Below are positions 8,865 to 47,907 of a stretch of DNA of 64,000 nt, piece by piece. The translations under genes and the position numbers were made by a program. Position 1 is the stretch's first letter. Every line of letters begins with the position of its first letter. The stretch spans positions 1,714,726 through 1,778,725 of the forward strand of contig NZ_LN890655.1 of assembly GCF_900066015.1 (NCBI RefSeq), written 5' to 3'. The notes beneath the pieces are model-generated. The model searched no databases. It saw only the letters and a program-made list of their open reading frames with translations, and was not told the origin of the DNA. The stretch comes from Candidatus Promineifilum breve (GTDB taxonomy: Bacteria > Chloroflexota > Anaerolineae > Promineifilales > Promineifilaceae).

Positions 8865-9416
8865 TTACGGCGATTCTATCACCGCCGGTAGGGCGTCGGC
8901 CAGCGTGTCATAGACGAGGAAGGGGGGCAGGTCGGCCGCGCCCGGCAGCCGCTCCTGATCGCCGCCGCGTCCGGTGCGCAACAGCACCGCCCGCGCCCCG
9001 GCGGCCTGCCCGGCCATCACGTCGCTCAGCGCGTCGCCGATCATCACCGAGCGGCTCAGGTCGATGTCCAGTTCTTCGGCCGCCCGCAACAGCAGGCCGG
9101 GTAAAGGCTTGCGGCAATCGCAGCCGTCATCCGGCCCGTGGGGGCACATATAGACGGCGTCGATGCGGCCGCCGGCGGCGCGCACGTGGGCCAGCAGCCG
9201 GTCGTTAATGGCCTCGGCCGTGGCCTGGGAGATGAGGCCGCGGCCGACGGCCGACTGGTTGGTGACCAGCACGATGCGGTAGGGGCAATCGCGCACGGCA
9301 GCCAGCGCGGCCACAGCCTGCGGGAATATCGCCACGTCGGCCCACGAGCGCACGTAGTTGCTGCAATTCTCGATGATCACGCCGTCGCGGTCGAGGAAGA
9401 GGGCGGGGTGCTTCAT
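8865..9416 (-). CDS. gmhB: D-glycero-D-manno-heptose 1,7-bisphosphate 7-phosphatase
   Basis: A 183-residue HAD-IIIA phosphatase. The nucleophile motif DRDGVI (residues 9-14) comes first, then VTNQSAVGRG (motif II Thr/Asn), then the zinc-binding loop CPHGPDDGCDCRKP with Cys, His, Cys, Cys, and finally the acidic motif MIGDALSDVMAG. This zinc loop is diagnostic of the histidinol-phosphatase/GmhB subfamily. It removes the 7-phosphate from heptose 1,7-bisphosphate in nucleotide-heptose synthesis. hddA and gmhA lie immediately upstream in the same direction, which favours GmhB over histidinol phosphatase. A 26-bp perfect-arm hairpin (9435-9502) separates it from gmhA. Confidence 0.9.
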   Translation of the reverse strand: MKHPALFLDRDGVIIENCSNYVRSWADVAIFPQAVAALAAVRDCPYRIVLVTNQSAVGRGLISQATAEAINDRLLAHVRAAGGRIDAVYMCPHGPDDGCDCRKPLPGLLLRAAEELDIDLSRSVMIGDALSDVMAGQAAGARAVLLRTGRGGDQERLPGAADLPPFLVYDTLADALPAVIESP

Positions 9417-9434
9417 GGCGTCGGAGAAGAGAAT

Positions 9435-9502
9435 CCACAGATTACACAGATTTCACAGATTGGGAGTGCATCTTCCATCTGTGAAATCTGTGTAATCTGT
9501 GG
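9435..9502. repeat. Long perfect hairpin of CACAGATT units
   Basis: The arms at 9435-9460 and 9477-9502 are perfect 26-bp inverted copies built from about 9-bp CACAGATT(T/A) units; the loop is 16 nt. Pairing continues imperfectly to about 9426-9510. The element fills the gmhA-gmhB gap. Related elements lie at 45201-45320 and, with CACGGAT units, at 63321-63414. Confidence 0.9.
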
Positions 9503-9519
9503 TTTTCTTCCGCTTAATC

Positions 9520-10104
9520 TCAGCGCGTCATCTCGCGCAGGGCTTTGGTGATCAGGTGCTCCAGCATCAGGTGGATGTCCTCCACCTGCTCGATACAATC
9601 GCTGGGCACGTGGAGATGGATATCGACCAGCGGCCCCAGCTTGCCCGCGCCGAAGCCGGTCATGCCGATGACCGTGGCCCCGCGCTCGTTGGCCAGTTCC
9701 ACGGCGCGCAGCACGTTGGGCGAGTTGCCGCTGGTGGAGATGGCGACCACCACGTCGCCGGGGTTGAGCAGGTTCGCCAGTTGCAGGCGGAAGACGTTGT
9801 CGTAGCCGTCATCGTTGCCATAGGCCGAGAAGATCGCCATGTTGTCGGCCAGGCCGATGACCTTGTAATGGGGCCAGTCGGCGTGGCGCGTGTTCTTGGC
9901 CAGGTCGCAAACCATGTGGCTGGCGGTCGAGGCGCTGCCGCCGTTGCCCATGATGAAGATTTGCTTGCCGTCCATGCGCGCCGCGTGCAGGGCGTCGATG
10001 GCGGCATGGATGGGCGCGCGGTCGATGCGGTCGAATACGGCCTTCATCTCGTCGAAGTACCATTCAACACTGGCTGTCTTGTCGAAATCGATTACTTGTA
10101 ACAT
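9520..10104 (-). CDS. gmhA: Sedoheptulose-7-phosphate isomerase (SIS domain)
   Basis: A 194-residue SIS-domain isomerase of the usual GmhA length (about 190-195). The phosphosugar-binding motif FIMGNGGSASTASHM is at about 50-64, followed by VVVAISTSGNSPNVLRAV and the C-terminal catalytic region QVEDIHLMLEHLI, where the Glu and His are those used by GmhA. It converts sedoheptulose 7-phosphate to D-glycero-D-manno-heptose 7-phosphate, the first committed step of heptose activation. An AAAGGTG ribosome-binding site precedes the start. It sits between the heptose kinase and gmhB. Confidence 0.92.
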   Translation of the reverse strand: MLQVIDFDKTASVEWYFDEMKAVFDRIDRAPIHAAIDALHAARMDGKQIFIMGNGGSASTASHMVCDLAKNTRHADWPHYKVIGLADNMAIFSAYGNDDGYDNVFRLQLANLLNPGDVVVAISTSGNSPNVLRAVELANERGATVIGMTGFGAGKLGPLVDIHLHVPSDCIEQVEDIHLMLEHLITKALREMTR

Positions 10105-10119
10105 CTATCACCTTTCTAT

Positions 10120-10244
10120 GTAGGGTCATCTTCCAGATGACCCCTCCGAAGTAACATCACGATTGGGTCATATCTGTAGGGTCATCTTCCAGATGACCCA
10201 TCCGAAGTGGCATCAGAATTGGGTCATCTGGAAGATGACCCTAC
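10120..10244. repeat. Tandem plus inverted GTAGG-stem-TCC hairpin element
   Basis: Two direct 56-bp units (10120-10175 and 10176-10231) each begin with GTAGGGTCATCTTCCAGATG, in which GGGTCATCT pairs perfectly with AGATGACCC across a TCC loop. A third copy at 10221-10244 is inverted and ends CCCTAC, so 10176-10244 has 24-bp perfect terminal inverted repeats. The hairpin layout matches the array at 31175-31417, which has a different stem sequence. The element fills the hddA-gmhA gap. Confidence 0.9.
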
Positions 10245-10251
10245 GCTATGC

Positions 10252-11232
10252 CTATCGTTGATAGTCGAAAATTACCTTGCTGCCGTCCTGGCCCAGATTG
10301 AAGGGCAACTCCTGGAGCATGTGCAGTTCGCGGCGCAAATGTTCCTGCCGGCCGGGCGGGCAATAGAGCAGCAGAAAGCCGCCGCCGCCGGCCCCGGCGA
10401 TCTTGCCGCCCGTGGCCCCGGCCCGGCGGGCCAGTTCGTACAGGTCGTCCACTTCGCTGTTGCTGATCTTGCTGGCTAATTGTTTCTTCAGCAGCCAACT
10501 GTCGTGCAGCAGGTCGCCGATGGCATCCATGTCCCCCTGCTGGAGCTTATCGCAGGCGACGCGGGCCACGTGCTTCATCTCTTCCAGCACCGACTCGCGC
10601 GAGCGGATGTTCGATTGCTGCTCGGCCAGAATCGAATCGGCCTTGCGCGTCACGCCGGTGTAGAACAGCAGCAGGTTGTGGTTCAACTGCCGCTTGGTGG
10701 CCGGGTCCAGCTCGATGCGCGTGCTGCGCACCTCGCCGTTGCCGGGCATGAACTCCATGAAGCGCAGCCCTCCATAGGCGGCGATGTATTGATCCTGGAT
10801 GCCGATGGGCTTGCCCAATACGTCGATCTCGATGTGGCACGCCTCGGCGGCCAGCCGCTCGGCCACGACCAGTTCGCGCTGCATGGTGTACATGGCATGG
10901 AGCGCGCCGACAGTGACCGTGCTCGACGACCCCAGACCGGAGCCTTCGGAGGGGATGTCGCCCATGGTGGTGATCTCCACGCCGTGGTCGATGCCCGTCA
11001 GCCGGAAGGCCTCGCGGATCAACTCGTGGTGCAGCTCATCGACCGAGTCGACCAGTTCGGTGTGGGTCCAACCGACGCGCAGCTTCTTGTCGAAGCGGCG
11101 CTTGATGGTGACGAAGATGTATTTGTCGATGGCCGAACTCAGCACACAGCCGCCGTGTTCCAGATAGTAGCCCGGAAAATCCGTCCCGCCGCCGAACAGG
11201 CTGGTTCGCAGCGGGGCTTGTACGATGATCAT
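10252..11232 (-). CDS. hddA: D-glycero-alpha-D-manno-heptose-7-phosphate kinase (GHMP kinase)
   Basis: A 326-residue GHMP-superfamily kinase. The N-terminal substrate motif [15 protein letters not shown] is characteristic of heptose/fucose kinases of the HddA type. The ATP-binding motif [19 protein letters not shown] lies near residues 95-113, and the third GHMP motif [14 protein letters not shown] is near the C-terminus. HddA phosphorylates heptose 7-phosphate at O-1 to give the 1,7-bisphosphate that GmhB then trims (established for the GDP-heptose route of S-layer glycans). Next to gmhA and gmhB this assignment is well supported. A GAGGTG lies 11 nt before the start. Confidence 0.9.
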
Positions 11233-18871: not shown

Positions 18872-20077
18872 TTAGGCGCGCTCCCCGGCTTTTTCGCCCG
18901 CGGCCACGGCCGCGCCGGTGCTATGAACCTTGCGCTTGCCGCCCAGCACGTCCTTGGCTCCCTGGGCCAGCAGCATCACGTTGGGCATGGGGTCGGCCAG
19001 CCGGAAATCGTTGGGCGTGCCGCGCAGCACGAAGCCCAGCCATTGCAACGGCTTCTTGATGGCGATGGAGTGGGCGATGTCCATGCTCAGCCACTGGTAG
19101 GTGACCGGCGTGCGCGGCATCTCCACCGGCCGGGCGTCGCCATCGACGGCCATTTGCGTCAGCAGATAGGGGAAATCGACGCCGGTGGCAATGGACAGCC
19201 CCAGCGACCCCCAGAACTTGGGGTTGATCTCGATCAGCTTGTATTGGCCGTCCTTCTCGTCTTTCTTGAACTCGACCATCGCCACGCCATGCCATTTCAA
19301 TTCGCGCAGCATCCGCGCGCCGACGGCGATCAATTCTTCATCGTAGAAGCTCTTAGCCATGGCGCTGGGGCCGCCGGTGGGCGGCACTTCGTGGATGCGC
19401 TCGTGCATGAAGTAGGCCACCACGTCGCCGTGGTTCATCAGGGCGTAGAAGCCGTGGGCCTTGCCGACGATGAACTCCTGCAGGATGGGGTAGACGCCCT
19501 CGGCCATCTGGTCGGCCACCTCGCCGCAAATCTGGGGGTAGACCACATCGCGCAACTCGGCGAAGCTGCCGGCGTAGGCGTAGTGCCCCTGGCCGCGGCG
19601 GGCCTTCACGACGACGGGATAGGGGATGTCGCGGAAGCGCTCCAGGTCGTCCGGGCCGTCGGGGTAATAGGTGATGGGCGTGGGCACGCCGACGCGCTCG
19701 CCAAAGAGAGTCGTGTCGGCCTTGTCCTCGGCGATGGCGAATAGCGGCCAGGGAGACACGGGCACGGCCGCATGGGCCGACAGCCGCTCCAGCCCGCAGG
19801 ACAGGATGCGAAAGCCGTCCAGCCCGGCGGCGATGATGGCATCGTAGCGGTTCTGCCGGGCCAACTTCTCCAGAAAGGCGATGCTCGGCTCCATGTCGTT
19901 GCTGTCGAGCGGGAAGACGTGGGCCTGGGCCAGATAGCGGCTATAGCTGGCCGCGGGCTTGCCGGCCTTGACCACGCTTTCGACGTGGATGCCGCGCTTG
20001 CCCAGCGAGCGCACCACGTCGATGGCGTGGCGCACGCCGGCATCGACTACCAGAACGCGGGTTTGTTGATCGTTCAT
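18872..20077 (-). CDS. ATP-grasp protein (carboxylate-amine ligase-like)
   Basis: A 401-residue protein with an N-terminal Rossmann-like pre-grasp domain (VLVVDAGVRHAIDVVRSLGKRG) and a central/C-terminal ATP-grasp fold. The nucleotide-binding strand is YPVVVKARRGQGHYAYAGS near residue 155, and the Mg-binding pair lies in KLIEINPKFWGSLGLS near residue 293 (E-I-N-P-K). It resembles carbamoyl-phosphate-synthase-like ATP-grasp proteins found in capsule loci, which join a carboxylate to an amine or thiol. The substrate is unknown; attaching an amino acid to the sugar acid or deacetylated sugar is an inference. Start and stop overlap neighbours (4-bp overlap with the GT upstream). Confidence 0.85.
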   Translation of the reverse strand: MNDQQTRVLVVDAGVRHAIDVVRSLGKRGIHVESVVKAGKPAASYSRYLAQAHVFPLDSNDMEPSIAFLEKLARQNRYDAIIAAGLDGFRILSCGLERLSAHAAVPVSPWPLFAIAEDKADTTLFGERVGVPTPITYYPDGPDDLERFRDIPYPVVVKARRGQGHYAYAGSFAELRDVVYPQICGEVADQMAEGVYPILQEFIVGKAHGFYALMNHGDVVAYFMHERIHEVPPTGGPSAMAKSFYDEELIAVGARMLRELKWHGVAMVEFKKDEKDGQYKLIEINPKFWGSLGLSIATGVDFPYLLTQMAVDGDARPVEMPRTPVTYQWLSMDIAHSIAIKKPLQWLGFVLRGTPNDFRLADPMPNVMLLAQGAKDVLGGKRKVHSTGAAVAAGEKAGERA

Positions 20078-21192
20078 GCCAGCGCCTCATAGAGCGTTTC
20101 ATATTGATCGATGACTTCGGACCACTGATAGCTGTCGCGTACCACGGCCTCGGCGCGGCCGGCCAGTTGGTGCATCTCGCGCGGGTGCGCCAGCGCCCAG
20201 ATCATCTTATCGCGCAGGTCGGCCACGTCGGACGAGCGGAAGAAGAGCGCCTCGTCGGGCAGCACGGCCCGGTTTTCGGGCAGGTCGCTGGCGATCAGCG
20301 GCGTCTTCAGCGCGGCGGCCTCCAGCAGCGTGGCGGCCATCGCCTCGTAGGTCGTGGGGAACAGGAACAGGGTCGCCATCTGGATCAGGGCGAAGAGCAG
20401 TCCCTTGTCGGACACAAAGCCGCCGAAGTGGGTGCGCTCGTCGGCCAAAGAGAGTAGTTCCTGATGGTACTCCGGGTCGAAGGCTGAATCGCCCAGGATG
20501 AGCAACGGCGTGGGGTCATCAATGTCGCGCATGGCCTGGAGCACGAAGTGGCAGCCCTTGCGGCGGATATTGCGCCCGGCGGTGAAGACCATGTAGTTGC
20601 CCGGCTCCAGGCCGTGCTGGGCCAGAAAGGCGCGGGCCTCTTCCAGCTTCAGGTCGGGCAACTGGATGCCGATGGGCAGATATTTCACCTCGCGGCCGTA
20701 ATGCTCCTCCAGAAACACCTTGTCCGGCAGCGAGACGCTGGTGCGGATGTTGGCCAGGTGCATGAATGGGTATTCGCAGGCTTTGAAGAACAGCTTGCCC
20801 TTGCCCCACGGGTTGTGCTCCTCGGGGATCATGCTGCCCAGGCCGTGGGCCGTCGCCACCACCTTGTAGCGCAGGCGCAACAGCGGCAGGACGAAGCTGG
20901 TCTCCATGCTGTGGACGTTGACCACGTCATAGTTGCCGAAGAACAGGGCGTGGAGCGCGGCCATCAGGAACGTCACCGTGGCGTGGGTGAACTTGCCGGG
21001 CACGGACGGCACGCGGATGATGCGCACACCGGGGACGGCGATATCCTTCGACACCTCGCGGCTGCTGACGTAGACCGTCGGCTCGAAACGCGTGTGGTCG
21101 AAGGACGTGGCGATCTTCTGCACCACGGCATCGACGCCCGCCTTGGCCGGCAGGGCTTTGATTCCAATAAATGCGACTTTCTTTTTCTTCAT
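20074..21192 (-). CDS. Glycosyltransferase family 4
   Basis: A 372-residue GT-B transferase. It begins KKKKVAFIGIKALPAKAGVDAVV, the usual acceptor loop with a small-residue turn. YMVFTAGRNIRRKGCHFVLQAM near residue 200 starts the donor domain, and PTTYEAMAATLLEAAALKTPLIASDLP near 285 is the E-x7-E region. Cytoplasmic face, sugar unknown. It is the first gene of the coupled run GT - ATP-grasp - PHP - deacetylase - GT, overlapping the ATP-grasp gene by ATGA. Confidence 0.9.
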   Translation of the reverse strand: MKKKKVAFIGIKALPAKAGVDAVVQKIATSFDHTRFEPTVYVSSREVSKDIAVPGVRIIRVPSVPGKFTHATVTFLMAALHALFFGNYDVVNVHSMETSFVLPLLRLRYKVVATAHGLGSMIPEEHNPWGKGKLFFKACEYPFMHLANIRTSVSLPDKVFLEEHYGREVKYLPIGIQLPDLKLEEARAFLAQHGLEPGNYMVFTAGRNIRRKGCHFVLQAMRDIDDPTPLLILGDSAFDPEYHQELLSLADERTHFGGFVSDKGLLFALIQMATLFLFPTTYEAMAATLLEAAALKTPLIASDLPENRAVLPDEALFFRSSDVADLRDKMIWALAHPREMHQLAGRAEAVVRDSYQWSEVIDQYETLYEALA

Positions 21193-24947: not shown

Positions 24948-26090
24948 TTAGTCGGCGGCCACGGCTTCCGGCATCTTCTCAGCCGCGCGGGCCAGGACGA
25001 AGGCGCGGACGGCCTCGGCCACGTAGGCCACCTTCTCGTCGTCCAGTTCGGGGAAGATGGGCAGCGAGACGATCTCCTCGGCATAAGCCTCGGTGACCGG
25101 GAAGTCGCCGCGCCGGTAGCCCAGTTCGGCATAGGCCGGTTGCAGGTGGATGGGGATGGGGTAGTGCAGGCCGGAGGCGATGCCCTTGCCCTTCAACTCT
25201 TCCATCAGCGCGTCGCGGTCGGCCATACGGATGACGTAGAGGTGGAAGATGTGCTCGGCATAGTCGGCCGTGGTCGGGGTGACGAGCGGCAGGTCGGCCA
25301 GCAACGCGGCATAGGTGGCGGCGGCGCGGCGGCGGCCGGCGTTCCAGTCGTTCAGGTGCGGCAGCTTGACCCGCAGCACGGCGGCCTGAATCGTATCCAG
25401 CCGGTTATTGAAGCCCTTCACCTCGTGGTAATACTTCACCTTCTGGCCGATGTTGCGCAGCAGGCGGATCTTCTCGGCGATGGCGGGGTCGTTGGTGGTC
25501 ACCGCGCCGCCGTCGCCATAGGCCCCCAGGTTCTTACCGGGGTAAAAGCTGAAGCCGGCGGCATCGCCCAGACTGCCGGCCATGCGCCCCTTGTAGCGCG
25601 CGCCGCTGGCCTGGGCCGCGTCCTCGAAGACCAGCAAGTTGTGCTTGCGGGCGATGGCCCGGATGGCGTCCATGTCGGCCATCTGGCCGTAGAGGTGGAC
25701 GGGCATGATGGCTTTGGTGCGCGGGGTGATGGCCGCCTCGATCTGCGTGGCGTCGATGTTGTAGGTCAGCGGATCGCAATCGACCAGCACCGGCGTCGCC
25801 CCGGCATTGGAAATCGCCAGGGTGGTGGCGATGAACGTATTGGCGGCGGTGATGACCTCATCGCCGGGGCCGATGTCGTAGGCGCGGACGATGAGTTCCA
25901 GCGCCGAGTAACCGGAATCGACGCCGACGCAATGGGCCACGCCGCAATAGGCCGCGAATTCGCGCTCGAATTCGGTCACGGCCCCGCCCAGGATGAAATC
26001 GCCGCGCTGCATGACGGCCAGCACGGCCGGGTCAACTTCTTGTTGGATCTGGCGATATTGGGATCGCAGATCGACGAATGGGATTTCCAT
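24948..26090 (-). CDS. DegT/DnrJ/EryC1-type sugar aminotransferase (WlbC/WbpE-like)
   Basis: A 380-residue PLP enzyme. The start is the ATG beginning [15 protein letters not shown], preceded by AAGAGGT; a longer open frame upstream is not homologous. PLP features are [10 protein letters not shown] (Asp157), [17 protein letters not shown] (Schiff-base Lys186) and the [12 protein letters not shown] phosphate loop. It aminates a 3- or 4-keto NDP-sugar. With the Gfo/Idh oxidoreductase (29163-30236) and hexapeptide acetyltransferase (28520-29170) close by, it fits the WlbA-WlbC-WlbB order of reactions giving a 3-acetamido sugar. The sugar identity is inferred. Confidence 0.92.
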
Positions 26091-26115
26091 GTGAATACCT
26101 CTTAACTTGAATATT

Positions 26116-30237: not shown

Positions 30238-31026
30238 TTAGCGAGCACCTTTGCCGTTGATGACGGCCGTCAACGTCATAAAGATAATTTTGATGTCCAG
30301 CCACAGCGATTGGCGGGTGATGTAATCAACGTCCATGCGCACCATTTCCTCGAAGCTGGTGGCGCTGCGGCCACGCACCTGCCACCAGCCGGTGATGCCC
30401 GGAACCGTGCGCAGACGGTCGTGGTGATGGAACAAGTATAGCTCAACTTCGTAAGGAATGGGCGGGCGCGGGCCGACCAGGCTCATGTTGCCCAGCAGCA
30501 CGTTCCCGAACTGCGGCAGTTCGTCGAGGCTGGTCTTGCGCAGGAAGCTGCCGACGCGGGTGACGCGCGGGTCTTGCACCAGCTTGAACTTGGCTTCTTC
30601 GGCCTTCTGGGCATTCTGCAATTCGGCCATGCGCTTGCTGTCGCCGGCGATGTAGGCTTCGATGAACTGGCGGTGGATGGTCGATTTGGCGTCGGCGCGC
30701 ATGGTGCGGAATTTGTAGATGGTGAAGGGGCGCTCTTCCCAGTAGACCTGGCCGTTGCGCACGACGCGCCGGGCGGTCACGCGCTCCTGGCGGAAGACGG
30801 CCGGGCCGGGCGAATCCCACTTGATGAGCAGGGCGATGAAGGCCAGCAGCGGCAGGAGAAAGACCATCGACAGGATGACGATGATGAAATCCATCACACG
30901 CTTGGCGAGGAAATACGTCGCGTCGGCGCCTTCTTGTTTGGCACTGATGGCCGGACCCATTGTCCACTGTAAGACCTTTTGCTCTTCCATTTCGCTCAGT
31001 TTCCTCTCGTTCGCCAGACCGCTCAT
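30238..31026 (-). CDS. Monotopic phosphoglycosyl transferase (initiating sugar transferase)
   Basis: A 262-residue small-form bacterial sugar transferase (PF02397). A single membrane segment at about 43-69 ([20 protein letters not shown]) is followed by the catalytic core [40 protein letters not shown] (catalytic Asp-Glu) and [18 protein letters not shown]. It transfers a sugar phosphate to undecaprenyl phosphate, starting the repeat unit. An ATG at 30990 with GAGGAAA upstream is an alternative start. It is the first gene of this minus-strand run; upstream are 0.8 kb of repeats and leader sequence. Confidence 0.93.
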
Positions 31027-31837: not shown

Positions 31838-34375
31838 ATGGGCACTACGTACTACGTATCGGCCGGCGGCGGCAACAATAACCATCCGGGAACCCAGGCC
31901 GACAAGCCGCTGCGCACGATTCAGGCGGCAATCAACAAGGCGCAGGCCGGCGACACGATCACGGTGAGCGCCGGCACCTACGCCGAGCGCCTGCACATCC
32001 AGAAGCCGGGCACGGCCGACGCGCCGATCCTCATCGCCGCCAAGGAAGGAGAGCAGCCGGTTATCGACGGCACCAGCCTGAACATCCCCGATGACGCCGC
32101 CCTGGTGGTCATCCAGCAAAGCCAGGACGTGACGCTGAGCGGCTTCACCATCCGCAATTCGGGCGGTCGCGGCCTATACGTCAACAAGGCCAGCCGCATC
32201 ACGCTGCGCGGCAACACGATTGCCGAGAGTTATGCCGGCGGCCTGCAAGCGATCCAGGCCGACGCGCTGCTGGTCGAGCAGTGCGCCATCCACGGTTGCG
32301 CCCGCCGCTTTCTGGCCCACGGCCCATCGCCGCTCAACGCCGCGCTGCTGGTCAAGAATTGCCGGGACGTCACCATCCGTCAGAATCAGGTGTACGAGAA
32401 TTCGGCCGAGGGCATCCTCGTCTCGGTCGGCAGCCGCCAGGTGGTCGTCAGCCAAAACGTGTGCTACGACAACCGCAACGGCCAGATCGGCGTCAAGTCG
32501 GCCGTCGACGTGACCATCGACTCGAATCTGTGCTACCACACCGGCCGCCAGCCGTATCTGACGCTACGCGAGCAGCGCGGGCCGGGCATCACCAAACAAG
32601 ACCTGGCCCGCTACCGCACCGACGGCTCATGGCACACCCGCGACGTGACCGTAGTCAACAACATCGTCGTCGGCTGCGGCGTGGGCTTCAGCGCCGACCA
32701 GCGCGGCGGCCAACTCAGCCGTTTCGCCCTGACCCACAATACGATCCTCAACAGCGCCGTGCGGGCCATCGAACTGGGCCGCAACGGCGGCGGCCGGCGG
32801 GCCTTCATCGAGAATAACCTGATCGCCTCCAGCAACGGCGGCGGCATGGCCCTGGCCGAGGGCAATGAGGGCATCGTCTGGCGGCACAATCTGTGGTCGA
32901 CCTTCCCCGGCGAAGATGTCTATAACCCGTCGAGCGACGTGATCGAGAGCGATATCGGGCTGGTCAACATCGATGCCCCGATCAGCGCCGGCGGCGTGAC
33001 GCCCGACCCGTACAAGCTGGTTGGCGCCTCCATTGCCATCAATCGCGGCATCCGCCACCAGGCCGCCATCGCCAAGGATTTCTGGGGCACGCCGCGCGAT
33101 ACGGCCCCCGACATCGGCGCCAACGAATTTCCCGACGCCAGCGGCGATGAGCTGGTGGATGATCCCGTCTTGCCGGCAGCGGGTACGCGCGTCAGCGATG
33201 GGCTGGTGGCCCTTTATGATTTCAAGGAAGGCCAGGGCCAGGAAGTGCGCGACGTCAGCGGCGCGGGTTCGGCGCTCCATCTGCGGATCATGGACGCTTC
33301 CCGCGTCAGTTGGAGCGCCAACGGCCTGACGCTCAACCAACCTGTCCTCATCTCGTCGGAACGGCCGGCGAAGAAGATCATCGACGCCTGCCGGGCGACG
33401 AACGAGATCACCCTGGAGGCATGGGTGCGGCCGGCCAACGTGACCCAGGACGGCCCGGCGCGCATCATCGGCATCTCCAACAACAAGACCCAGCGCAACA
33501 TCACCCTGGGGCAGGGGATGCACGGCAACCGGCCGGCCGATCTCTACATGGCCCGGCTGCGCACAACACTGACCTCCGGTAACGGCCTGCCCGCGGTGGT
33601 GACGCCGGCGGGCACGGCCAGCCAAAGCCTGACCCACATCGTCTACACCCGCCGGGCCAATCATCGCGCCATCCTCTACGTCAACGGCCAGGAACGCGGT
33701 GTACTGAACGTCGATGGCGACTTCAGCAATTGGGATGCCCAAATGCCGCTGTTGCTGGGCGACGAAATGAGCGAAGACCGGCCGTGGCTGGGGCTGTATA
33801 ACCTGTGCGCCATCTATGGCCGGGCGCTGAAGCCGGCCGAAGTGTTGCACAACTACGAGGCCGGCTTCACCAGCGATGCGCCATTGACGGCCGAGTTCTC
33901 CATTCTGCCCGGCGACGAATACGGCATCGCCCCCCACGTCGTTGAGTTCGATTCGGCCGACACGATTTCGACGGCCGGCGTCAGTGCCCACTTCTGGGAA
34001 TTCGGCGACGGGCAGACCTCGACCCGCGCCGCGCCGACCAATACCTACACGACGCCCGGCGTCTACACCGTCTCGCTGACGGTCACCGACGTCAACGGTC
34101 TGACCAGTAAGGTCACCAAGGAAGAGTTGATCACCGTCGTCGAGACGCCGGTGGCCCCGCTGCCGGCCGACTATGCCCGGTTTGTGCTGGTCAAAGTCGC
34201 CAATTCGCGCATCAAAGCCTTCGGGATTCAATACCCCGACCTGCGCTGCGCGCTGATGTGGAACGAGGAGCCGTTCCACATGATGGTCTATACCGCCATC
34301 GATGACGTGCGCCGTATCTTCACCGCCGGCAACGCCATCGAATTGATCTGGGTTGATTCCTTAGAAGAAGAGTAG
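31838..34375 (+). CDS. Parallel beta-helix + LamG-like + PKD protein
   Basis: 845 residues. The start follows AGGGAGAAAAAGAG. There is no signal peptide: it opens directly with TYYVSAGGGNNNHPGTQ and a DUF1565-like segment (IQAAINKAQAGDTITVSAGTY). Right-handed beta-helix rungs fill about 80-340, a concanavalin/LamG-like sandwich about 445-640, a PKD domain about 685-760 (HFWEFGDGQTSTRAAPTNTY), and a compact C-terminal domain from 779 (YARFVLVKV ... AFGIQYPDLRC ... W/N-EEPFH) shared with the next gene. Such architectures bind or cleave polysaccharides outside the cell, yet no export signal is seen. It may bind or trim the polymer made by the surrounding locus. No catalytic residues could be assigned. 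Confidence 0.87.
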   Translation: MGTTYYVSAGGGNNNHPGTQADKPLRTIQAAINKAQAGDTITVSAGTYAERLHIQKPGTADAPILIAAKEGEQPVIDGTSLNIPDDAALVVIQQSQDVTLSGFTIRNSGGRGLYVNKASRITLRGNTIAESYAGGLQAIQADALLVEQCAIHGCARRFLAHGPSPLNAALLVKNCRDVTIRQNQVYENSAEGILVSVGSRQVVVSQNVCYDNRNGQIGVKSAVDVTIDSNLCYHTGRQPYLTLREQRGPGITKQDLARYRTDGSWHTRDVTVVNNIVVGCGVGFSADQRGGQLSRFALTHNTILNSAVRAIELGRNGGGRRAFIENNLIASSNGGGMALAEGNEGIVWRHNLWSTFPGEDVYNPSSDVIESDIGLVNIDAPISAGGVTPDPYKLVGASIAINRGIRHQAAIAKDFWGTPRDTAPDIGANEFPDASGDELVDDPVLPAAGTRVSDGLVALYDFKEGQGQEVRDVSGAGSALHLRIMDASRVSWSANGLTLNQPVLISSERPAKKIIDACRATNEITLEAWVRPANVTQDGPARIIGISNNKTQRNITLGQGMHGNRPADLYMARLRTTLTSGNGLPAVVTPAGTASQSLTHIVYTRRANHRAILYVNGQERGVLNVDGDFSNWDAQMPLLLGDEMSEDRPWLGLYNLCAIYGRALKPAEVLHNYEAGFTSDAPLTAEFSILPGDEYGIAPHVVEFDSADTISTAGVSAHFWEFGDGQTSTRAAPTNTYTTPGVYTVSLTVTDVNGLTSKVTKEELITVVETPVAPLPADYARFVLVKVANSRIKAFGIQYPDLRCALMWNEEPFHMMVYTAIDDVRRIFTAGNAIELIWVDSLEEE

Positions 34376-34423
34376 GAGAGCGCACTCCGTAACTCGGACT
34401 GCAAGATTAGCATGTAAGGTAGG

Positions 34424-36430
34424 ATGCCAATGGCTACTTATTACGTAGATGGAAACACGGGCAACGATGCCAACAACGGCAGCAGCGCCCAACCGTGGAA
34501 GAAGCTGGGCCAGGCGATGGACGTGGTGCAACCCGGCGACGAGGTGCGCATTCGCACCGCCGTCTATCACGAGGAGTTGCGCATCAACGTCGCCAATACG
34601 ACGTGGAAGGCCGACACGGGTCACAAGCCGGTCATCGACGGCCGCTATCACGAGGGGCTATTCGAAAACGGCCGTCTGCCCACCCCAGGCGAAGGGAACG
34701 GCTATCTGCCCGAGGGCGAAGGCAACATGGTGCGCTGCCGGGGCGAGGGGGTCACGCTGGACGGCCTGACCATCCAGAATTGCGCCGGCACCGGCATCGG
34801 CGTCAGCGAATCGAACGTGACCATCCGCAATTGCCGGCTCGATTTCACCTACGACTCGTCGATTAAGGTCAACCCGACGACGACCTACATTGACAACGTC
34901 GTGGTGGAAAACAATGTCTGCACGCGCTCCAGTATGCGCTACTTCGACCCCAACCGCTCCAACCCCGGCGGCTCGCAGAGCGTCAACGGCGTGTGCAAGA
35001 TCGGCCGGACGCGCGATGGCATCATCCGCAACAACGTCTTCGCCTACGGCCACGGCGAGGGGATCAACGTCGACAAGGGCACTTCGCGCATTCTGGTGGA
35101 AGGCAACATCGTCCACACCTGCAACCATGTCCACATCTATATCAACCACTCCATCGATCCCATCATTCGCAACAATCTGATCTACCATCTGTATACGAAT
35201 GATCACCTGGGCGAGAACGGCCGGCCGCCGGCGGCCATTATCTACGGCGACGAACATGCCGGTGGCGCGCCCTGGGCACCCAGTTCGGGCGGGGCAATCT
35301 ATAACAACCTCATCATCGGTCTGGGCAAGCTGTTCATGGTGCGCAACAACACCCACAACTACGACACCCAACTCGATCACGCCTACATCGGCTATAACAC
35401 CTTCATCGGCGGCAGCAAGACCGAGGCGGGCATCCAGATTCTGGGCAACAGCCATGGCCGGCCGCACAAAGACAGCATCTTCGAAAACAACATCATCATC
35501 AACGCGCCGCAGATTAGCCAGGTGACGGGCAGCATCAGCGGTCTGGCCTTCCGCAACAACCTGTGGAGCGAGCAGCCCCACCAGGCCATGCGCGGCCCCG
35601 GCGATCGCATCGGCAACCCCAAGCTGGTTGACCCGCTGGCCGAGATTGAGTTCACCTTCCCCGATCCCAACACCAATATCGATCCGCGCAATTATCAGCT
35701 TACCAGCCACAGCGCGCTGGCGATTGGCATGGCTAGCGACGGGTCGCAGTTCAACAACCTGCGACCGCCGACGATCAACAAGGACTTCTTCGGGGCCAAT
35801 CGCGACGGCCAGCCCGACATCGGCGCGCACGAATTCGCCGGGGTGGTCACCGACCTGACGGCCAACTTCAGCATCGGGCCGGGCCAGGGCGCGGGCAGCC
35901 TGCCCCACACCGTCGATTTCACCGACAAGAGCGTCTCGCAGCACCCCATCGTCAGCCACGCCTGGGATTTCGGCGACGGGCAAACCTCGACCGAGACGAA
36001 CCCGTCCCATACCTACGCCACGGCCGGCGACTTCGACGTCTCGCTGACTGTGACCGACGACCAGGGCAACAGCGACACCCTGACCCAACCCGGCCTGATC
36101 AACGTGACCGCGGAGCCGGACACGGAGATTCCCGACACATTCCGCCGCTTCATCCTGATGCAGCCGGCGGCCCAGCAGATATTGGCCTTCGGCACGCAAT
36201 ACCCCGACCTGCGTTGCATCGTCATCTGGAACGACGATCCGTTCCATTTGCTCAACTTTGCCGACGTGGAAGACGTGGTGCGCGGCCTGGCCGACGACAC
36301 CACCGAAGTGATATGGATCGACCCCAGCGACCAGGGCGAGCCGATCCTGACCGAGGATGACGTGGAGCCGATAGAATCGTCGGCTTCACGGGAATCGCCG
36401 GCGGCGATTCTGGCCCGTGTCCGCGCCTGA
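34424..36430 (+). CDS. Parallel beta-helix + PKD protein, paralogue of upstream gene
   Basis: 668 residues (a second ATG 6 nt downstream is equally good; TAAGGTAGG lies just upstream). It opens TYYVDGNTGNDANNGSSAQP, a DUF1565-like start, with no signal peptide. Beta-helix rungs occupy about 60-400 (NVVVENNVCTRSS, IIRNNVFAYGHGEG), a PKD domain about 480-560 (SHAWDFGDGQTSTETNPSHTY), and the shared C-terminal domain starts at 573 (FRRFILMQ ... AFGTQYPDLRC ... WNDDPFH). An acidic tail of about 30 residues follows. It lacks the LamG part of its neighbour. Transcription ends at the hairpin at 36454-36486. A polysaccharide-associated role is inferred from context. Confidence 0.87.
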   Translation: MPMATYYVDGNTGNDANNGSSAQPWKKLGQAMDVVQPGDEVRIRTAVYHEELRINVANTTWKADTGHKPVIDGRYHEGLFENGRLPTPGEGNGYLPEGEGNMVRCRGEGVTLDGLTIQNCAGTGIGVSESNVTIRNCRLDFTYDSSIKVNPTTTYIDNVVVENNVCTRSSMRYFDPNRSNPGGSQSVNGVCKIGRTRDGIIRNNVFAYGHGEGINVDKGTSRILVEGNIVHTCNHVHIYINHSIDPIIRNNLIYHLYTNDHLGENGRPPAAIIYGDEHAGGAPWAPSSGGAIYNNLIIGLGKLFMVRNNTHNYDTQLDHAYIGYNTFIGGSKTEAGIQILGNSHGRPHKDSIFENNIIINAPQISQVTGSISGLAFRNNLWSEQPHQAMRGPGDRIGNPKLVDPLAEIEFTFPDPNTNIDPRNYQLTSHSALAIGMASDGSQFNNLRPPTINKDFFGANRDGQPDIGAHEFAGVVTDLTANFSIGPGQGAGSLPHTVDFTDKSVSQHPIVSHAWDFGDGQTSTETNPSHTYATAGDFDVSLTVTDDQGNSDTLTQPGLINVTAEPDTEIPDTFRRFILMQPAAQQILAFGTQYPDLRCIVIWNDDPFHLLNFADVEDVVRGLADDTTEVIWIDPSDQGEPILTEDDVEPIESSASRESPAAILARVRA

Positions 36431-37796: not shown

Positions 37797-38957
37797 TTAG
37801 ACGATGCCCTCGGCCGTCAGCCAGGCAATCGCCCGCTTATAGTCTACTTTATGCGCTTTGGCGAAGCCGTCAAAATCCGACTTCTTGCCCGTTATCCGGC
37901 GCATGGCCGAACTATAGAGTGTGCGGGCGACGTGATCCGCCTCGCACACCTTGACAAACGTCGCCTGATTGCCGAAGCATTTGTTGATCAGGATCGACCC
38001 GCCCCACGGCGTCTCCTCGGTGAAGTAGGTTACCGTTTTGGGTTCCAGCGCGCCGACGATGTTTGCCAGTTGGCTGCCCTGGAAGCCGAGGATATTGGTG
38101 TGTTCGTTGACGACCCGCAACTGCTCGGCAAAGGGCAACTGTTGGGGATGGACGATGCGCGCACCGCGCTCGGCCAGGAAGGACTCGACCTTTTCCTCGC
38201 CGATGTACTGGCGCACGCCGCTCTTGTGGGCGGTGCGCGACAGATAGAGCGGCTGATCGGTCGGCCGCGCGTCGGCCACGCCCAGGGCCACGGCCAGCTT
38301 GTTCATAAATTCGCGGTAGGCGTCGTGGGTATGGCTCTGCAATTGAAACGACGTCTGCGGGACGATGACCCGGCTGAGGCGGGTGGGCCGGTCGAAGGTG
38401 ACCAGGTTGTCGGCGGTGATGCCCATCGCGTCGAGGCAGGCCTTGATGTAGGGCCGCTGCAAGAGCGACGGGTCGTAGACGTGGAAGCAATAGCGGTCAA
38501 TGTCGCCCAGATTCTCCGTCAGCGCCCACCAGTTGGACAGAGTCTCCATGATGTAGTGGCCGAAGTGGGGGCGGATGTGGTTCATGTACAGCACCGGGCG
38601 GTCATAGACCGGCAGGTCGTCCACGTCACCGGCGAAACGTGGCGGGTCGGTGTTGAACAGATCGTCGGAGCGGCGGCGGAGGGTCAGTGAGTGAGGGATC
38701 TGGTTCAGCTCCCGGTCATAGAGACAGCCGACGCGCTGCTTGGCCCCACCGCGCACGGCCGGCGTGTAGATGACGTCGCTATGGGTGGTCAACGCCGGTT
38801 TTGCCGGGATCAGGCGGAAAGGCCGTTCGCCACGAAAGAAGCGTTCGGGCTTGGAAAAATGAACGAAACGAAAGTCGTCGCTCGTGATAGCGATGGCCGT
38901 GGGGTCGTCGGCAGCGCGGCGCGGGTCGGAATAGGTGACCGCCGGTAACGAATTCAT
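37797..38957 (-). CDS. Glycosyltransferase family 61 (DUF563)
   Basis: 386 residues with GAGGT before the start. The GT61/DUF563 core is clear: NHIRPHFGHYIMETLSNWW near residue 128, PLYLSRTAHKSGVRQYIGEE near 240 and NEHTNILGFQGSQLANIV near 290. GT61 includes EGF- and xylan-modifying enzymes and many bacterial capsule transferases; the sugar (often xylose, GlcNAc or a heptose-like acceptor) cannot be read from sequence. It is 63 bp downstream of the DegT gene's start region and transcribed the same way. Confidence 0.87.
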   Translation of the reverse strand: MNSLPAVTYSDPRRAADDPTAIAITSDDFRFVHFSKPERFFRGERPFRLIPAKPALTTHSDVIYTPAVRGGAKQRVGCLYDRELNQIPHSLTLRRRSDDLFNTDPPRFAGDVDDLPVYDRPVLYMNHIRPHFGHYIMETLSNWWALTENLGDIDRYCFHVYDPSLLQRPYIKACLDAMGITADNLVTFDRPTRLSRVIVPQTSFQLQSHTHDAYREFMNKLAVALGVADARPTDQPLYLSRTAHKSGVRQYIGEEKVESFLAERGARIVHPQQLPFAEQLRVVNEHTNILGFQGSQLANIVGALEPKTVTYFTEETPWGGSILINKCFGNQATFVKVCEADHVARTLYSSAMRRITGKKSDFDGFAKAHKVDYKRAIAWLTAEGIV

Positions 38958-45327: not shown

Positions 45328-46242
45328 TTACCAGCCGCGGGTCGCCAGTTGCTGGTCTTCGGTCAGGGTGTGGATGCCGATGCCGACCATCGGCTGGCCC
45401 AGATTCTCGCTGACGCGGGCCAGGATTTCGGCGTTGCGGAAGTGGGTGGTGGCCTCGACGATGGCCTTGGCCCGCCGCGCCGGGTCGCCGCTCTTGAAGA
45501 TGCCGGAGCCGACGAACAGGCCATCGACGCCCAGTTGCATCATCAGCGCCGCGTCGGCCGGGGTGGCGATGCCGCCGGCGGCGAAATTGACCACCGGCAG
45601 GCGGCCGAGCGCCCGCGTCTCCTTGACCAGTTCATAAGGCGCGCCGATCTCCTTGGCGAAGGTCATCAGCTCCTCTTCGGGCATGGCTTGCAGGCGGCGA
45701 ATGTCGCCCAGCACGGTGCGGGCGTGGCGCACGGCCTCGACCACGTCGCCCGTGCCCGCCTCGCCCTTGGTGCGGATCATGGCCGCGCCCTCGCCCACGC
45801 GCCGCAGCGCCTCGCCCAGGTTGCGGCAGCCGCAGACGAACGGGATGCCGAAGTCGTGCTTGTTGATGTGGTAGCTCTCATCGGCCGGGGTCAGCACTTC
45901 GCTCTCATCGATGAAGTCGACGCCCAGCGCCTCCAGGATTTGGGCCTCCACAAAGTGGCCGATGCGCACCTTGGCCATGACCGGAATGCTGACCGCGGCC
46001 ATGATCTCCTTGATCAGGCCGGGGTCCGACATGCGGGCCACGCCACCGCTGACGCGAATATCGGCCGGGACGCGCTCCAGGGCCATGACGGCCACCGCGC
46101 CCGCTTCCTCGGCGATGCGGGCGTGCTCGGCCGTCACCACGTCCATGATCACGCCACCCTTCAGCATCTGGGCCAGCCCGCGCTTGACGGTGAGGTTGCC
46201 CACCTCGCCGCGGCCGTTCTGGTTGTGTCCGTTCTCGTTCAT
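45328..46242 (-). CDS. pdxS: Pyridoxal 5'-phosphate synthase, synthase subunit
   Basis: 304 residues, the usual PdxS length. Catalytic Lys91 lies in [15 protein letters not shown] and Lys159 in [15 protein letters not shown] (equivalents of the K81/K149 pair). [20 protein letters not shown] and [17 protein letters not shown] are diagnostic. It condenses ribose 5-phosphate, glyceraldehyde 3-phosphate and ammonia to PLP; the ammonia normally comes from the glutaminase PdxT, which is not adjacent here. A clear promoter lies at 46316-46344. PLP could feed the three aminotransferases nearby, though this is only suggestive. Confidence 0.97.
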
Positions 46243-46403: not shown

Positions 46404-47907
46404 GAGGTTAGAAACCGAGTTTCTCAGAATAATACCTTCGCCAAATCACGAAGGGCAAAGGGCAGGTTGAGGGGGATGAATCCTGCCCAACCTGGAAATC
46501 CGGTCGAAAATTGCTTCCGTAAAAATCGGGTCTGGTTTTTGCGGAAGCAATTTTAGCACTTCGGCCACGTATTTATGGCCGCGATAATGAGCTTTCAAAT
46601 CCAGCACGTTGACCGCTGGGTCTTCACGCCGCAGGTCCTGTAACAACACCTGAGAAACGTTGACCATCAGGAAGGACAGATTGATGGCATTGGTCACCGG
46701 GGTCTTTTTGACGTTCATAAAGTCCTCTAAACCCCAGTATTGTTTGGCGTCGCGGAAATTGAACTCGATTTGAAAACGCAGTTGATAATACTCTAGCACC
46801 TGCGACCAGTTCAGGGCCAGGTCGCTGGTGAACAACAACACACGGGCCTGCGCGCCGGTGGTCGGCCTTGTTTTGAGCAGGATGACCACATTGAGCGGCT
46901 GGGCGAACGCCTTGTGGCGCAGGGTAGCCTGATAGATGTCGGTGTGGACGCCGTCGTCGATGATCGTCTGCTGCCAGCAGCTGGCCGGGAGGTTGTCATA
47001 GGCGACCTTAGCGCCGTACTTACAACGTTTGTTGTCCCCCTGGTAGGGGAAATACAGGGCGGCATCGTGACGCAATTTGGAAACCAGGTGCAGCCCGCAC
47101 TGCCGAACCATTTGCAGGGCATTGTTGTTGCCGAAGTGGCCGTCCAAGACCAGATAGGTCAATTTGAGTCGTTGGTCAACCACCGCCAAAAACTGCTTGA
47201 CCATCGTTTGGATGCGGGTCAGTTCGGGCGTTAAGGTCACCTCGGTTTTGATGCTGTTGCGACGCCCCGGCGGGCGGCCGGGGCGGCCCGCGCTACTTTG
47301 GGCGGCGGCTTTCTTGCGCCGCGTCCGCGGCTTGACCTCTCTGTTTACCCCTTCCTGGCTGGGCACTTGTTCGCTCATCACCGGATACGACCGCCGTTCC
47401 CGCGGGTTGACCAACGACAAGGCAAACAGGGCCACGCTGGACACTGGCCGGCCCCATAACGGCGCATAGAAGCGTCCCAAGCCGTGCGTCTCCTTGCCCG
47501 ATTTGCTGACGACACATTCATCCCCCACTAACAGGTACTCGTCCCCGGCCTGGTGCAGATGGTCACGGAAGAAGGCCCACATGACTTGTGTCCAGGGAAT
47601 GGTGGTCTGGAAAAAACGTTGTACGCTCCGATAGCTGCCCCCTTTATCCGTCCAGCGCGCCATGCCCAACATCGTTACTCGTCCAGTCATGGCTAACATC
47701 GCCCCCATGAGTACGCTCATCTGCCGCATGGTCGTTTGGCTAACAATAGGACGCAATGGTTGTAATAGTGCTAGAATATTCATCGTGGGTGGTTGTGTCG
47801 ACGGTTCCTTTTCCTTGGTCGGTAAAGTTTCCTATCTTACACGCCCACCCACTTTTTGCTATTTTTTTGGCGAAGGTATTATCAGAAGAAACTCGGTTTC
47901 TAATCTC
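46404..47907. mobile_element. IS4-family insertion sequence with about 40-bp terminal inverted repeats
   Basis: The left end (46404-46445) and right end (47866-47907) are inverted copies with GAG(A/G)TTAGAAACCGAGTTTCT outside and AATACCTTCGCCAAA inside; a few mismatches lie between. One transposase gene fills the interior, so the element looks complete (about 1.5 kb). I do not see a clear target duplication. The right end is 9 bp from the stop of the secreted-protein gene at 47916. Confidence 0.9.
46446..47783 (-). CDS. IS4-family DDE transposase
   Basis: 445 residues, intact. The catalytic acidic residues are in LLVGDECVVSKSGK (first D), YLVLDGHFGNNNALQM (second D) and FQIEFNFRDAKQYWG (E). 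The last part fits the Y-(2)-R-(3)-E-(6)-K signature of IS4 exactly: Y in YYQLR, then R, E and K. A basic linker (RTRRKKAAAQSSAGRPGRPPGRR) sits near residue 160. It cuts and pastes its own element using the flanking repeats. No frameshift or early stop, so the element may still be active. Confidence 0.93.
   Translation of the reverse strand: MNILALLQPLRPIVSQTTMRQMSVLMGAMLAMTGRVTMLGMARWTDKGGSYRSVQRFFQTTIPWTQVMWAFFRDHLHQAGDEYLLVGDECVVSKSGKETHGLGRFYAPLWGRPVSSVALFALSLVNPRERRSYPVMSEQVPSQEGVNREVKPRTRRKKAAAQSSAGRPGRPPGRRNSIKTEVTLTPELTRIQTMVKQFLAVVDQRLKLTYLVLDGHFGNNNALQMVRQCGLHLVSKLRHDAALYFPYQGDNKRCKYGAKVAYDNLPASCWQQTIIDDGVHTDIYQATLRHKAFAQPLNVVILLKTRPTTGAQARVLLFTSDLALNWSQVLEYYQLRFQIEFNFRDAKQYWGLEDFMNVKKTPVTNAINLSFLMVNVSQVLLQDLRREDPAVNVLDLKAHYRGHKYVAEVLKLLPQKPDPIFTEAIFDRISRLGRIHPPQPALCPS

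What the first reader, a model, noticed from the sequence alone, without database searches (positions are those of the whole stretch)
31838..36430. Shared uncharacterised C-terminal domain in two beta-helix/PKD proteins without signal peptides
Residues 779-845 and 573-640 share the pattern F-x-L-x(7)-I-x-AFGxQYPDLRC-x3-WNxxPFH ... (V/I)W(V/I)D with nearly identical spacing, while the rest of the two proteins differs in domain content. PKD and beta-helix domains normally work outside the cell, yet both proteins start directly with the helix. The tail could be a sorting, assembly or secretion signal.
Basis: seen in the sequence. Interest (0 to 1): 0.6.

Follow-up and report, generated by a model that had tools for sequence, protein, structure and literature searches.

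The report
Phage-family domain on biofilm-locus beta-helix proteins
Two neighbouring proteins in a slime-polysaccharide gene cluster of a sludge filament bacterium (Promineifilum relatives) both end in the same small folded domain, which turns out to be a diverged copy of a widespread phage protein of unknown function; the proteins lack the usual export signal, and a third protein in the same cells carries the same domain behind a membrane anchor.

Summary
Both ORFs (31838-34375, 34424-36430) end in a homologous ~65-residue domain, preceded by a homologous PKD domain. No signal peptide can fit in front of either start, nor in any ortholog examined. The tail is not an orphan: it is a diverged branch of phage family PHROG_7499 (standalone ~70-aa proteins in actinophages, Bacillus phage G, haloarchaeal viruses and plasmids; function unknown). 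hhalign gives 98.7%, score 80.8 versus at most 13.6 for shuffles; the confident AF2 fold best matches those phage proteins in BFVD. It lost that family's two conserved motifs and forms one clade in these Chloroflexota. The gene pair sits beside the sugar-transferase-like gene of a polysaccharide locus, conserved in Promineifilum. P2's beta-helix resembles RbmB, AlgE4/6 and tailspikes; its closest paralogs in the genome are signal-less phage/prophage proteins. All nine family genomes with the tail on a beta-helix also carry a membrane-anchored copy; 43 others have neither. Best reading: matrix-polysaccharide beta-helix proteins whose captured phage-type domain is a non-catalytic docking/assembly module. 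A secretion signal is possible (AlgE precedent) but unshown, and the domain's other settings (standalone phage proteins, an HTH fusion) do not suggest it. Export route: unresolved.

The parts
31838..34375 (+). P1, 845 aa: signal-less beta-helix + LamG + PKD + tail
   Evidence: ORF; Pfam Beta_helix E 3e-25, Laminin_G_3 E 1e-19, PKD_4 E 2e-15; orthologs 58-70% identical in the genus
33929..34132 (+). P1 PKD domain (aa 698-765)
   Evidence: Pfam PKD_4
34166..34372 (+). P1 tail domain (aa 777-845), PHROG_7499-like
   Evidence: phrog_7499 E 0.0025; hhalign A1/A3 prob 98.7 with shuffle control; AF2 pLDDT 91, bbbb-alpha-b; BFVD top hits are PHROG_7499-type phage proteins
34424..36430 (+). P2, 668 aa: signal-less beta-helix + PKD + tail
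   Evidence: ORF; Pfam; AF2 model mean pLDDT 73; VIA Z 31 to RbmB and AlgE4/6 A-modules
35906..36085 (+). P2 PKD domain (aa 495-554)
   Evidence: Pfam PKD_4 E 9e-17
36140..36325 (+). P2 tail domain (aa 573-634)
   Evidence: 43% identical to the P1 tail; same fold in the full-length model
36326..36427 (+). P2 variable acidic C-terminal extension, low confidence
   Evidence: 27% mean identity among orthologs; pLDDT about 30-47
30238..31026 (-). sugar transferase-like gene adjacent to the pair, conserved neighbour in the loci long enough to tell
   Evidence: synteny by tblastn, including the other-genus locus L077; function read from sequence, not profile-tested
20074..21192 (-). glycosyltransferase group 1 of the same polysaccharide locus
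   Evidence: Pfam PF00534 E 3e-18
24948..26102 (-). DegT/DnrJ sugar aminotransferase of the same locus
   Evidence: Pfam PF01041 E 2e-129
37797..38957 (-). glycosyltransferase family 61 protein of the same locus
   Evidence: Pfam PF04577 E 3e-15

Best explanation
The tail is a domesticated, diverged copy of a small phage/plasmid domain (PHROG_7499). It was probably captured once in the Promineifilum lineage and now sits (a) at the C-terminus of two adjacent signal-less beta-helix proteins of an exopolysaccharide locus and (b) behind the membrane anchor of a third protein encoded elsewhere. P1 and P2 most likely act on or hold the cell's own matrix polysaccharide, like RbmB, AlgE and WceF. The tail, which has lost the conserved motifs of its phage relatives but keeps its fold core, most likely works as a non-catalytic docking/assembly module that keeps P1 and P2 at the surface, possibly by pairing with the membrane-anchored copy. 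Shown: homology of the tail, predicted fold, single clade, conserved gene pair and synteny, lack of signal peptides, co-occurrence. Inferred: polysaccharide activity, extracellular location, docking. Unknown: how P1/P2 leave the cell.
For: Tail homologous to PHROG_7499: 16 of 21 tails match it, best E 8.5e-5; hhalign score 80.8 vs at most 13.6 in 60 shuffles and the reversed control; BFVD hits E 1e-4, TM 0.74-0.79. Single clade of Chloroflexota tails, support 95/92. The phage members' DxSGVSGTG and HGHxG motifs are lost, the F, A, G, W, D core kept. The tail evolves slightly faster than the beta-helix (54-56% vs 63% identity), more like a docking part than an enzyme. All 9 of 52 family genomes with tail-on-beta-helix also carry an anchored tail protein; the other 43 have neither. 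Synteny with polysaccharide genes, including a second genus. P2 beta-helix: RbmB Z 31.4, AlgE4/6 Z about 31, tailspikes Z 26-29; WceF is a tailspike-like enzyme encoded in an EPS cluster (PMC7949094).
Against: No experiment and no binding data. The co-occurrence comes from only two lineages (one genus of eight species plus one other genome), so it is not nine independent events. The anchored gene is not next to the pair. Topology of the anchored protein was judged by eye. Tail-tail pairing was not modelled. No export route was identified.
Confidence: 0.42

Rival explanations
1. The tail is a C-terminal export signal: P1 and P2 leave the cell unprocessed through a dedicated exporter that recognises the folded tail, as AlgE epimerases leave by type I secretion without an N-terminal signal.
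For: Signal-less beta-helices in all orthologs. The two beta-helices come from different clades yet both lack signals and carry the tail. Best structural matches AlgE4/AlgE6 align from chain residues 1-2, and their export by a type I system is reported (Gimmestad 2006, cited in PMC4465626).
Against: The domain family is mostly standalone phage/plasmid proteins and one HTH fusion. No RTX repeats. No HlyD over the curated TIGR01843 cut-off. Signal-less beta-helices with another C-terminus exist in the genome's phages.
Confidence: 0.17
2. P1 and P2 are cytoplasmic, or are released only by lysis, as domesticated phage tailspike-like proteins; the tail is a stabilising or oligomerising remnant of phage origin.
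For: P2's closest paralogs in the genome are signal-less beta-helices beside holins in a phage contig and a prophage (33-36% and 27-31% identity). Phage spikes need no signal peptide. The tail is of a phage family.
Against: P1's beta-helix groups with the secreted type. Both genes are conserved in a polysaccharide locus, not a phage module. LamG and PKD are typical of extracellular proteins. Phage paralogs lack the tail.
Confidence: 0.22
3. The tail binds the polysaccharide or another ligand itself (a small carbohydrate-binding-like module), with no role in location.
For: Position after PKD/LamG in a polysaccharide-locus protein. New conserved residues in the Chloroflexota branch (QYPDxRC, WNxxPxH).
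Against: Homologs are intracellular-type phage proteins. No Pfam/NCBIfam match. A membrane-anchored copy exists away from the polysaccharide locus.
Confidence: 0.15

Closest known systems
PHROG_7499 (SH1 ORF8 / phage Dori gp40 / VWB family, function unknown; homologs listed in PMC3622292)
   Same: Homologous sequence profile and predicted fold; fold-core residues kept
   Different: Here fused to the end of large beta-helix proteins or to membrane anchors; DxSGVSGTG and HGHxG motifs lost
AlgE mannuronan C-5 epimerases (Azotobacter)
   Same: Beta-helix A-module fold (Z about 31) beginning at the N-terminus; polysaccharide-modifying; C-terminal accessory modules
   Different: C-terminal modules are RTX R-modules exported by type I secretion; here a PKD and a PHROG_7499-like domain, no type I adaptor over cut-off
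WceF of Pantoea stewartii
   Same: Tailspike-like beta-helix encoded in an exopolysaccharide cluster
   Different: Has a Tat signal (PMC7949094); no PKD/tail
RbmB of Vibrio cholerae
   Same: Best structural match to P2's beta-helix (Z 31.4); encoded in a biofilm-matrix gene cluster
   Different: Has a predicted signal peptide (PMC11637428); no PKD/tail

Membership tests
PHROG_7499 | Profile-level sequence homology over the domain | tested here: met
   16 of 21 tails match phrog_7499, best E 8.5e-5; hhalign prob 98.7 with shuffle control
PHROG_7499 | Same predicted fold | tested here: met
   BFVD top 6 hits include Haloarcula viruses and Streptomyces phages VWB, Coruscant, Tribute, TM 0.74-0.79
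PHROG_7499 | Conserved DxSGVSGTG and HGHxG motifs of the phage members | tested here: not met
   Absent in the window tails and their orthologs; the viral set was found by these motifs, so their invariance is overstated
AlgE-type epimerases | Right-handed beta-helix A-module without N-terminal signal | tested here: met
   (Z about 31)
AlgE-type epimerases | C-terminal RTX R-modules | tested here: not met
   Pfam shows only PKD, and the tail is a different fold
AlgE-type epimerases | Type I exporter | tested here: inconclusive
   No TIGR01843 match over cut-off in the genome; other exporters not surveyed
WceF / tailspike-like EPS enzymes | Beta-helix protein encoded in an EPS locus | tested here: met
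   enzymatic activity itself not tested
WceF / tailspike-like EPS enzymes | N-terminal export signal | tested here: not met
   No signal
WceF / tailspike-like EPS enzymes | Trimeric assembly | not testable with these tools
   No multimer modelling or biochemistry available
PL6 / chondroitinase B | Pfam Chondroitinas_B over the curated cut-off | tested here: not met
   P1 19.0 bits vs 24 cut-off, P2 none
Known C-terminal sorting domains (PEP-CTERM, LPXTG, T9SS CTD) | Match to curated models, or sorting motif plus hydrophobic tail | tested here: not met
   No Pfam or NCBIfam match of the tails at E up to 10; no hydrophobic C-terminal segment in the sequence

The most novel reading that the evidence does not exclude
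A phage-derived small domain has been turned into a surface-retention or export tag in Promineifilum-lineage Chloroflexota: signal-less matrix beta-helix proteins carry it at their C-terminus and a membrane protein displays the same domain as a homotypic receptor, making a new kind of protein-to-surface pairing system.
Probability: 0.15. Interest if true: 0.7.

Novelty: new variant of a known kind. Interest (0 to 1): 0.42.

Why it matters
Promineifilum relatives are abundant filaments of activated sludge, and their matrix proteins are uncharacterised. The finding ties a very common phage protein family of unknown function to a cellular setting where its role could be tested, and raises a concrete question about how signal-less beta-helix/PKD proteins leave a Chloroflexota cell.

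Tried and rejected
No Pfam or NCBIfam family for the tail and no PDB sequence relative. PDB fold matches of the tail are weak (best Z 5.1 to YkuJ) and not used. The idea of an orphan Promineifilum-only domain was dropped once PHROG_7499 homology was found. Contractile injection cargo: sheath genes exist on C2 but far from the pair, so not pursued. Viral contigs or phage records encoding P1- or P2-like whole proteins: none found. The weak own-genome match at C1:202469 lies in a shifted frame of unrelated genes and is taken as chance. Two alignment scans failed for lack of conserved stretches.

Full report
Observation. P1 (31838-34375) and P2 (34424-36430) are adjacent + strand ORFs. Pfam finds beta-helix, LamG and PKD in P1 and beta-helix and PKD in P2. 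The PKD plus tail regions are 44% identical over 170 aa, E 4e-41, and the tail alone is Z 16 above shuffles. Neither ORF can have a signal peptide: the upstream stop lies 11 and 2 codons before the start. Orthologs show the same; two P1 orthologs have 19-44 extra open codons, not hydrophobic.

Organism. The window lies in a 5.03-Mb genome (C1 3,989,163; C2 1,004,044; C3 40,759 bases). Loci from related species are named Promineifilum / Ardenticatenia. That the genome is Ca. Promineifilum breve itself is a guess from memory of its size and replicons.

Conservation. The adjacent pair is found in all eight genomes of the genus held, next to the same sugar transferase-like gene and other polysaccharide genes (Pfam of neighbours: GT group 1, DegT, GT61, sulfatase). 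A single larger relative (1249-aa frame: beta-helix, PKD, LamG, PKD, LamG, tail; no signal) lies next to the sugar transferase in another genus (L077).

What the tail is. Single tails hit phrog_7499 weakly; across 21 tails 16 hit it, best E 8.5e-5. tblastn of the P1 tail finds small hypothetical proteins of Streptomyces, Mycobacterium and Haloarcula viruses, and all 12 relatives collected from phages, plasmids and one Chloroflexota genome hit phrog_7499, best E 1e-34. Profile-profile comparison gives 98.7% probability and score 80.8; 60 column shuffles and the reversed profile give at most 13.6. AF2 models the tail as bbbb-alpha-b at pLDDT 91, and its best viral structural neighbours are PHROG_7499-type proteins. 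The family is large: 352 IMG/VR contigs by motif scan, mostly standalone ORFs of about 70 aa, plus plasmids of Nocardia, Deinococcus, Bacillus and haloarchaea. In Chloroflexota it also occurs as standalone phage-type copies (L055, L058, L245, L246) and once behind a LuxR-type HTH (L056; the HTH is read from sequence). A published table already lists the SH1 ORF8 / Dori gp40 / VWB / Nocardia homologs without function (PMC3622292).

How the Chloroflexota tails differ. They form one clade (95/92; short alignment, bootstrap not settled). They lack DxSGVSGTG and HGHxG but keep the core F, A, G, W, D; new conserved residues are Q-Y/F-P-D, R-C, W-N, P. The viral set was found through those motifs, so their invariance among phages is overstated; in the tblastn-derived set A3 the SGxSG loop is present in 11 of 12.

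Membrane-anchored copies. Every genome with the pair has a third copy; where read, it lies behind several hydrophobic segments and an RRQFLLQFGAGAAA-type segment (326 aa in the window genome, L005). The other genus has a 137-aa frame with a Tat-like SRRDFLALG segment and the domain (L022). By the positive-inside rule the domain would be outside; this is inference. Nine of 52 family genomes have both kinds, 43 have neither. Fisher p 3e-10 ignores that this is one genus plus one genome; G037's third copy lies in a 109-aa frame that I did not inspect.

What the rest is. P2's model (pLDDT 73, weak at 398-476) matches RbmB (Z 31.4), AlgE4/6 (about 31), NosD and tailspikes (26-29). In the genome, P2's nearest other relatives are signal-less beta-helices next to holins in the C3 phage contig and a C1 prophage; P1's beta-helix groups with secreted ones. 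Other beta-helix/PKD proteins of the genome nearly all have hydrophobic, anchor or Tat-like N-termini.

Mechanism. The most economical account is a polysaccharide-matrix pair with a domesticated phage domain as docking/assembly part. A C-terminal export signal has a real precedent in AlgE, but nothing here shows an exporter, and the family's other contexts do not suggest export. Lysis release or cytoplasmic location cannot be excluded.

Noticed in passing
G000:C3 (L232, L233): 40.8-kb contig is phage-like (portal phrog_113 E 6e-56, holin) and carries a signal-less beta-helix protein (L232:5797-7272) that is P2's closest paralog, with a different helical C-terminus.
   Followed up: partly
G000:C1:2582000-2601000 (L234): Prophage with tape measure, signal-less beta-helix (9316-10944) and holin; the beta-helix shares its helical C-terminus with the C3 phage protein.
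   Followed up: partly
G000:C2:795000-814000 (L244): Two phage-sheath family proteins with neighbouring large ORFs: looks like a contractile injection system locus.
   Followed up: no
L056:1276-1686: A Chloroflexota protein joins a LuxR-type HTH to a PHROG_7499-like domain, hinting at a regulatory use of the domain.
   Followed up: no
L060:1797-2210 (Bacillus phage G gp248) and L063:1797-2219: Tandem arrangement: a short-loop copy followed by a full-motif copy of the domain, suggesting that motif-less copies also exist in phages and plasmids.
   Followed up: no
window 46446-47783: DDE transposase gene near the edge of the polysaccharide locus (Pfam DDE_5 E 8e-35); a PdxS-like gene (45328-46242) precedes it.
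   Followed up: no
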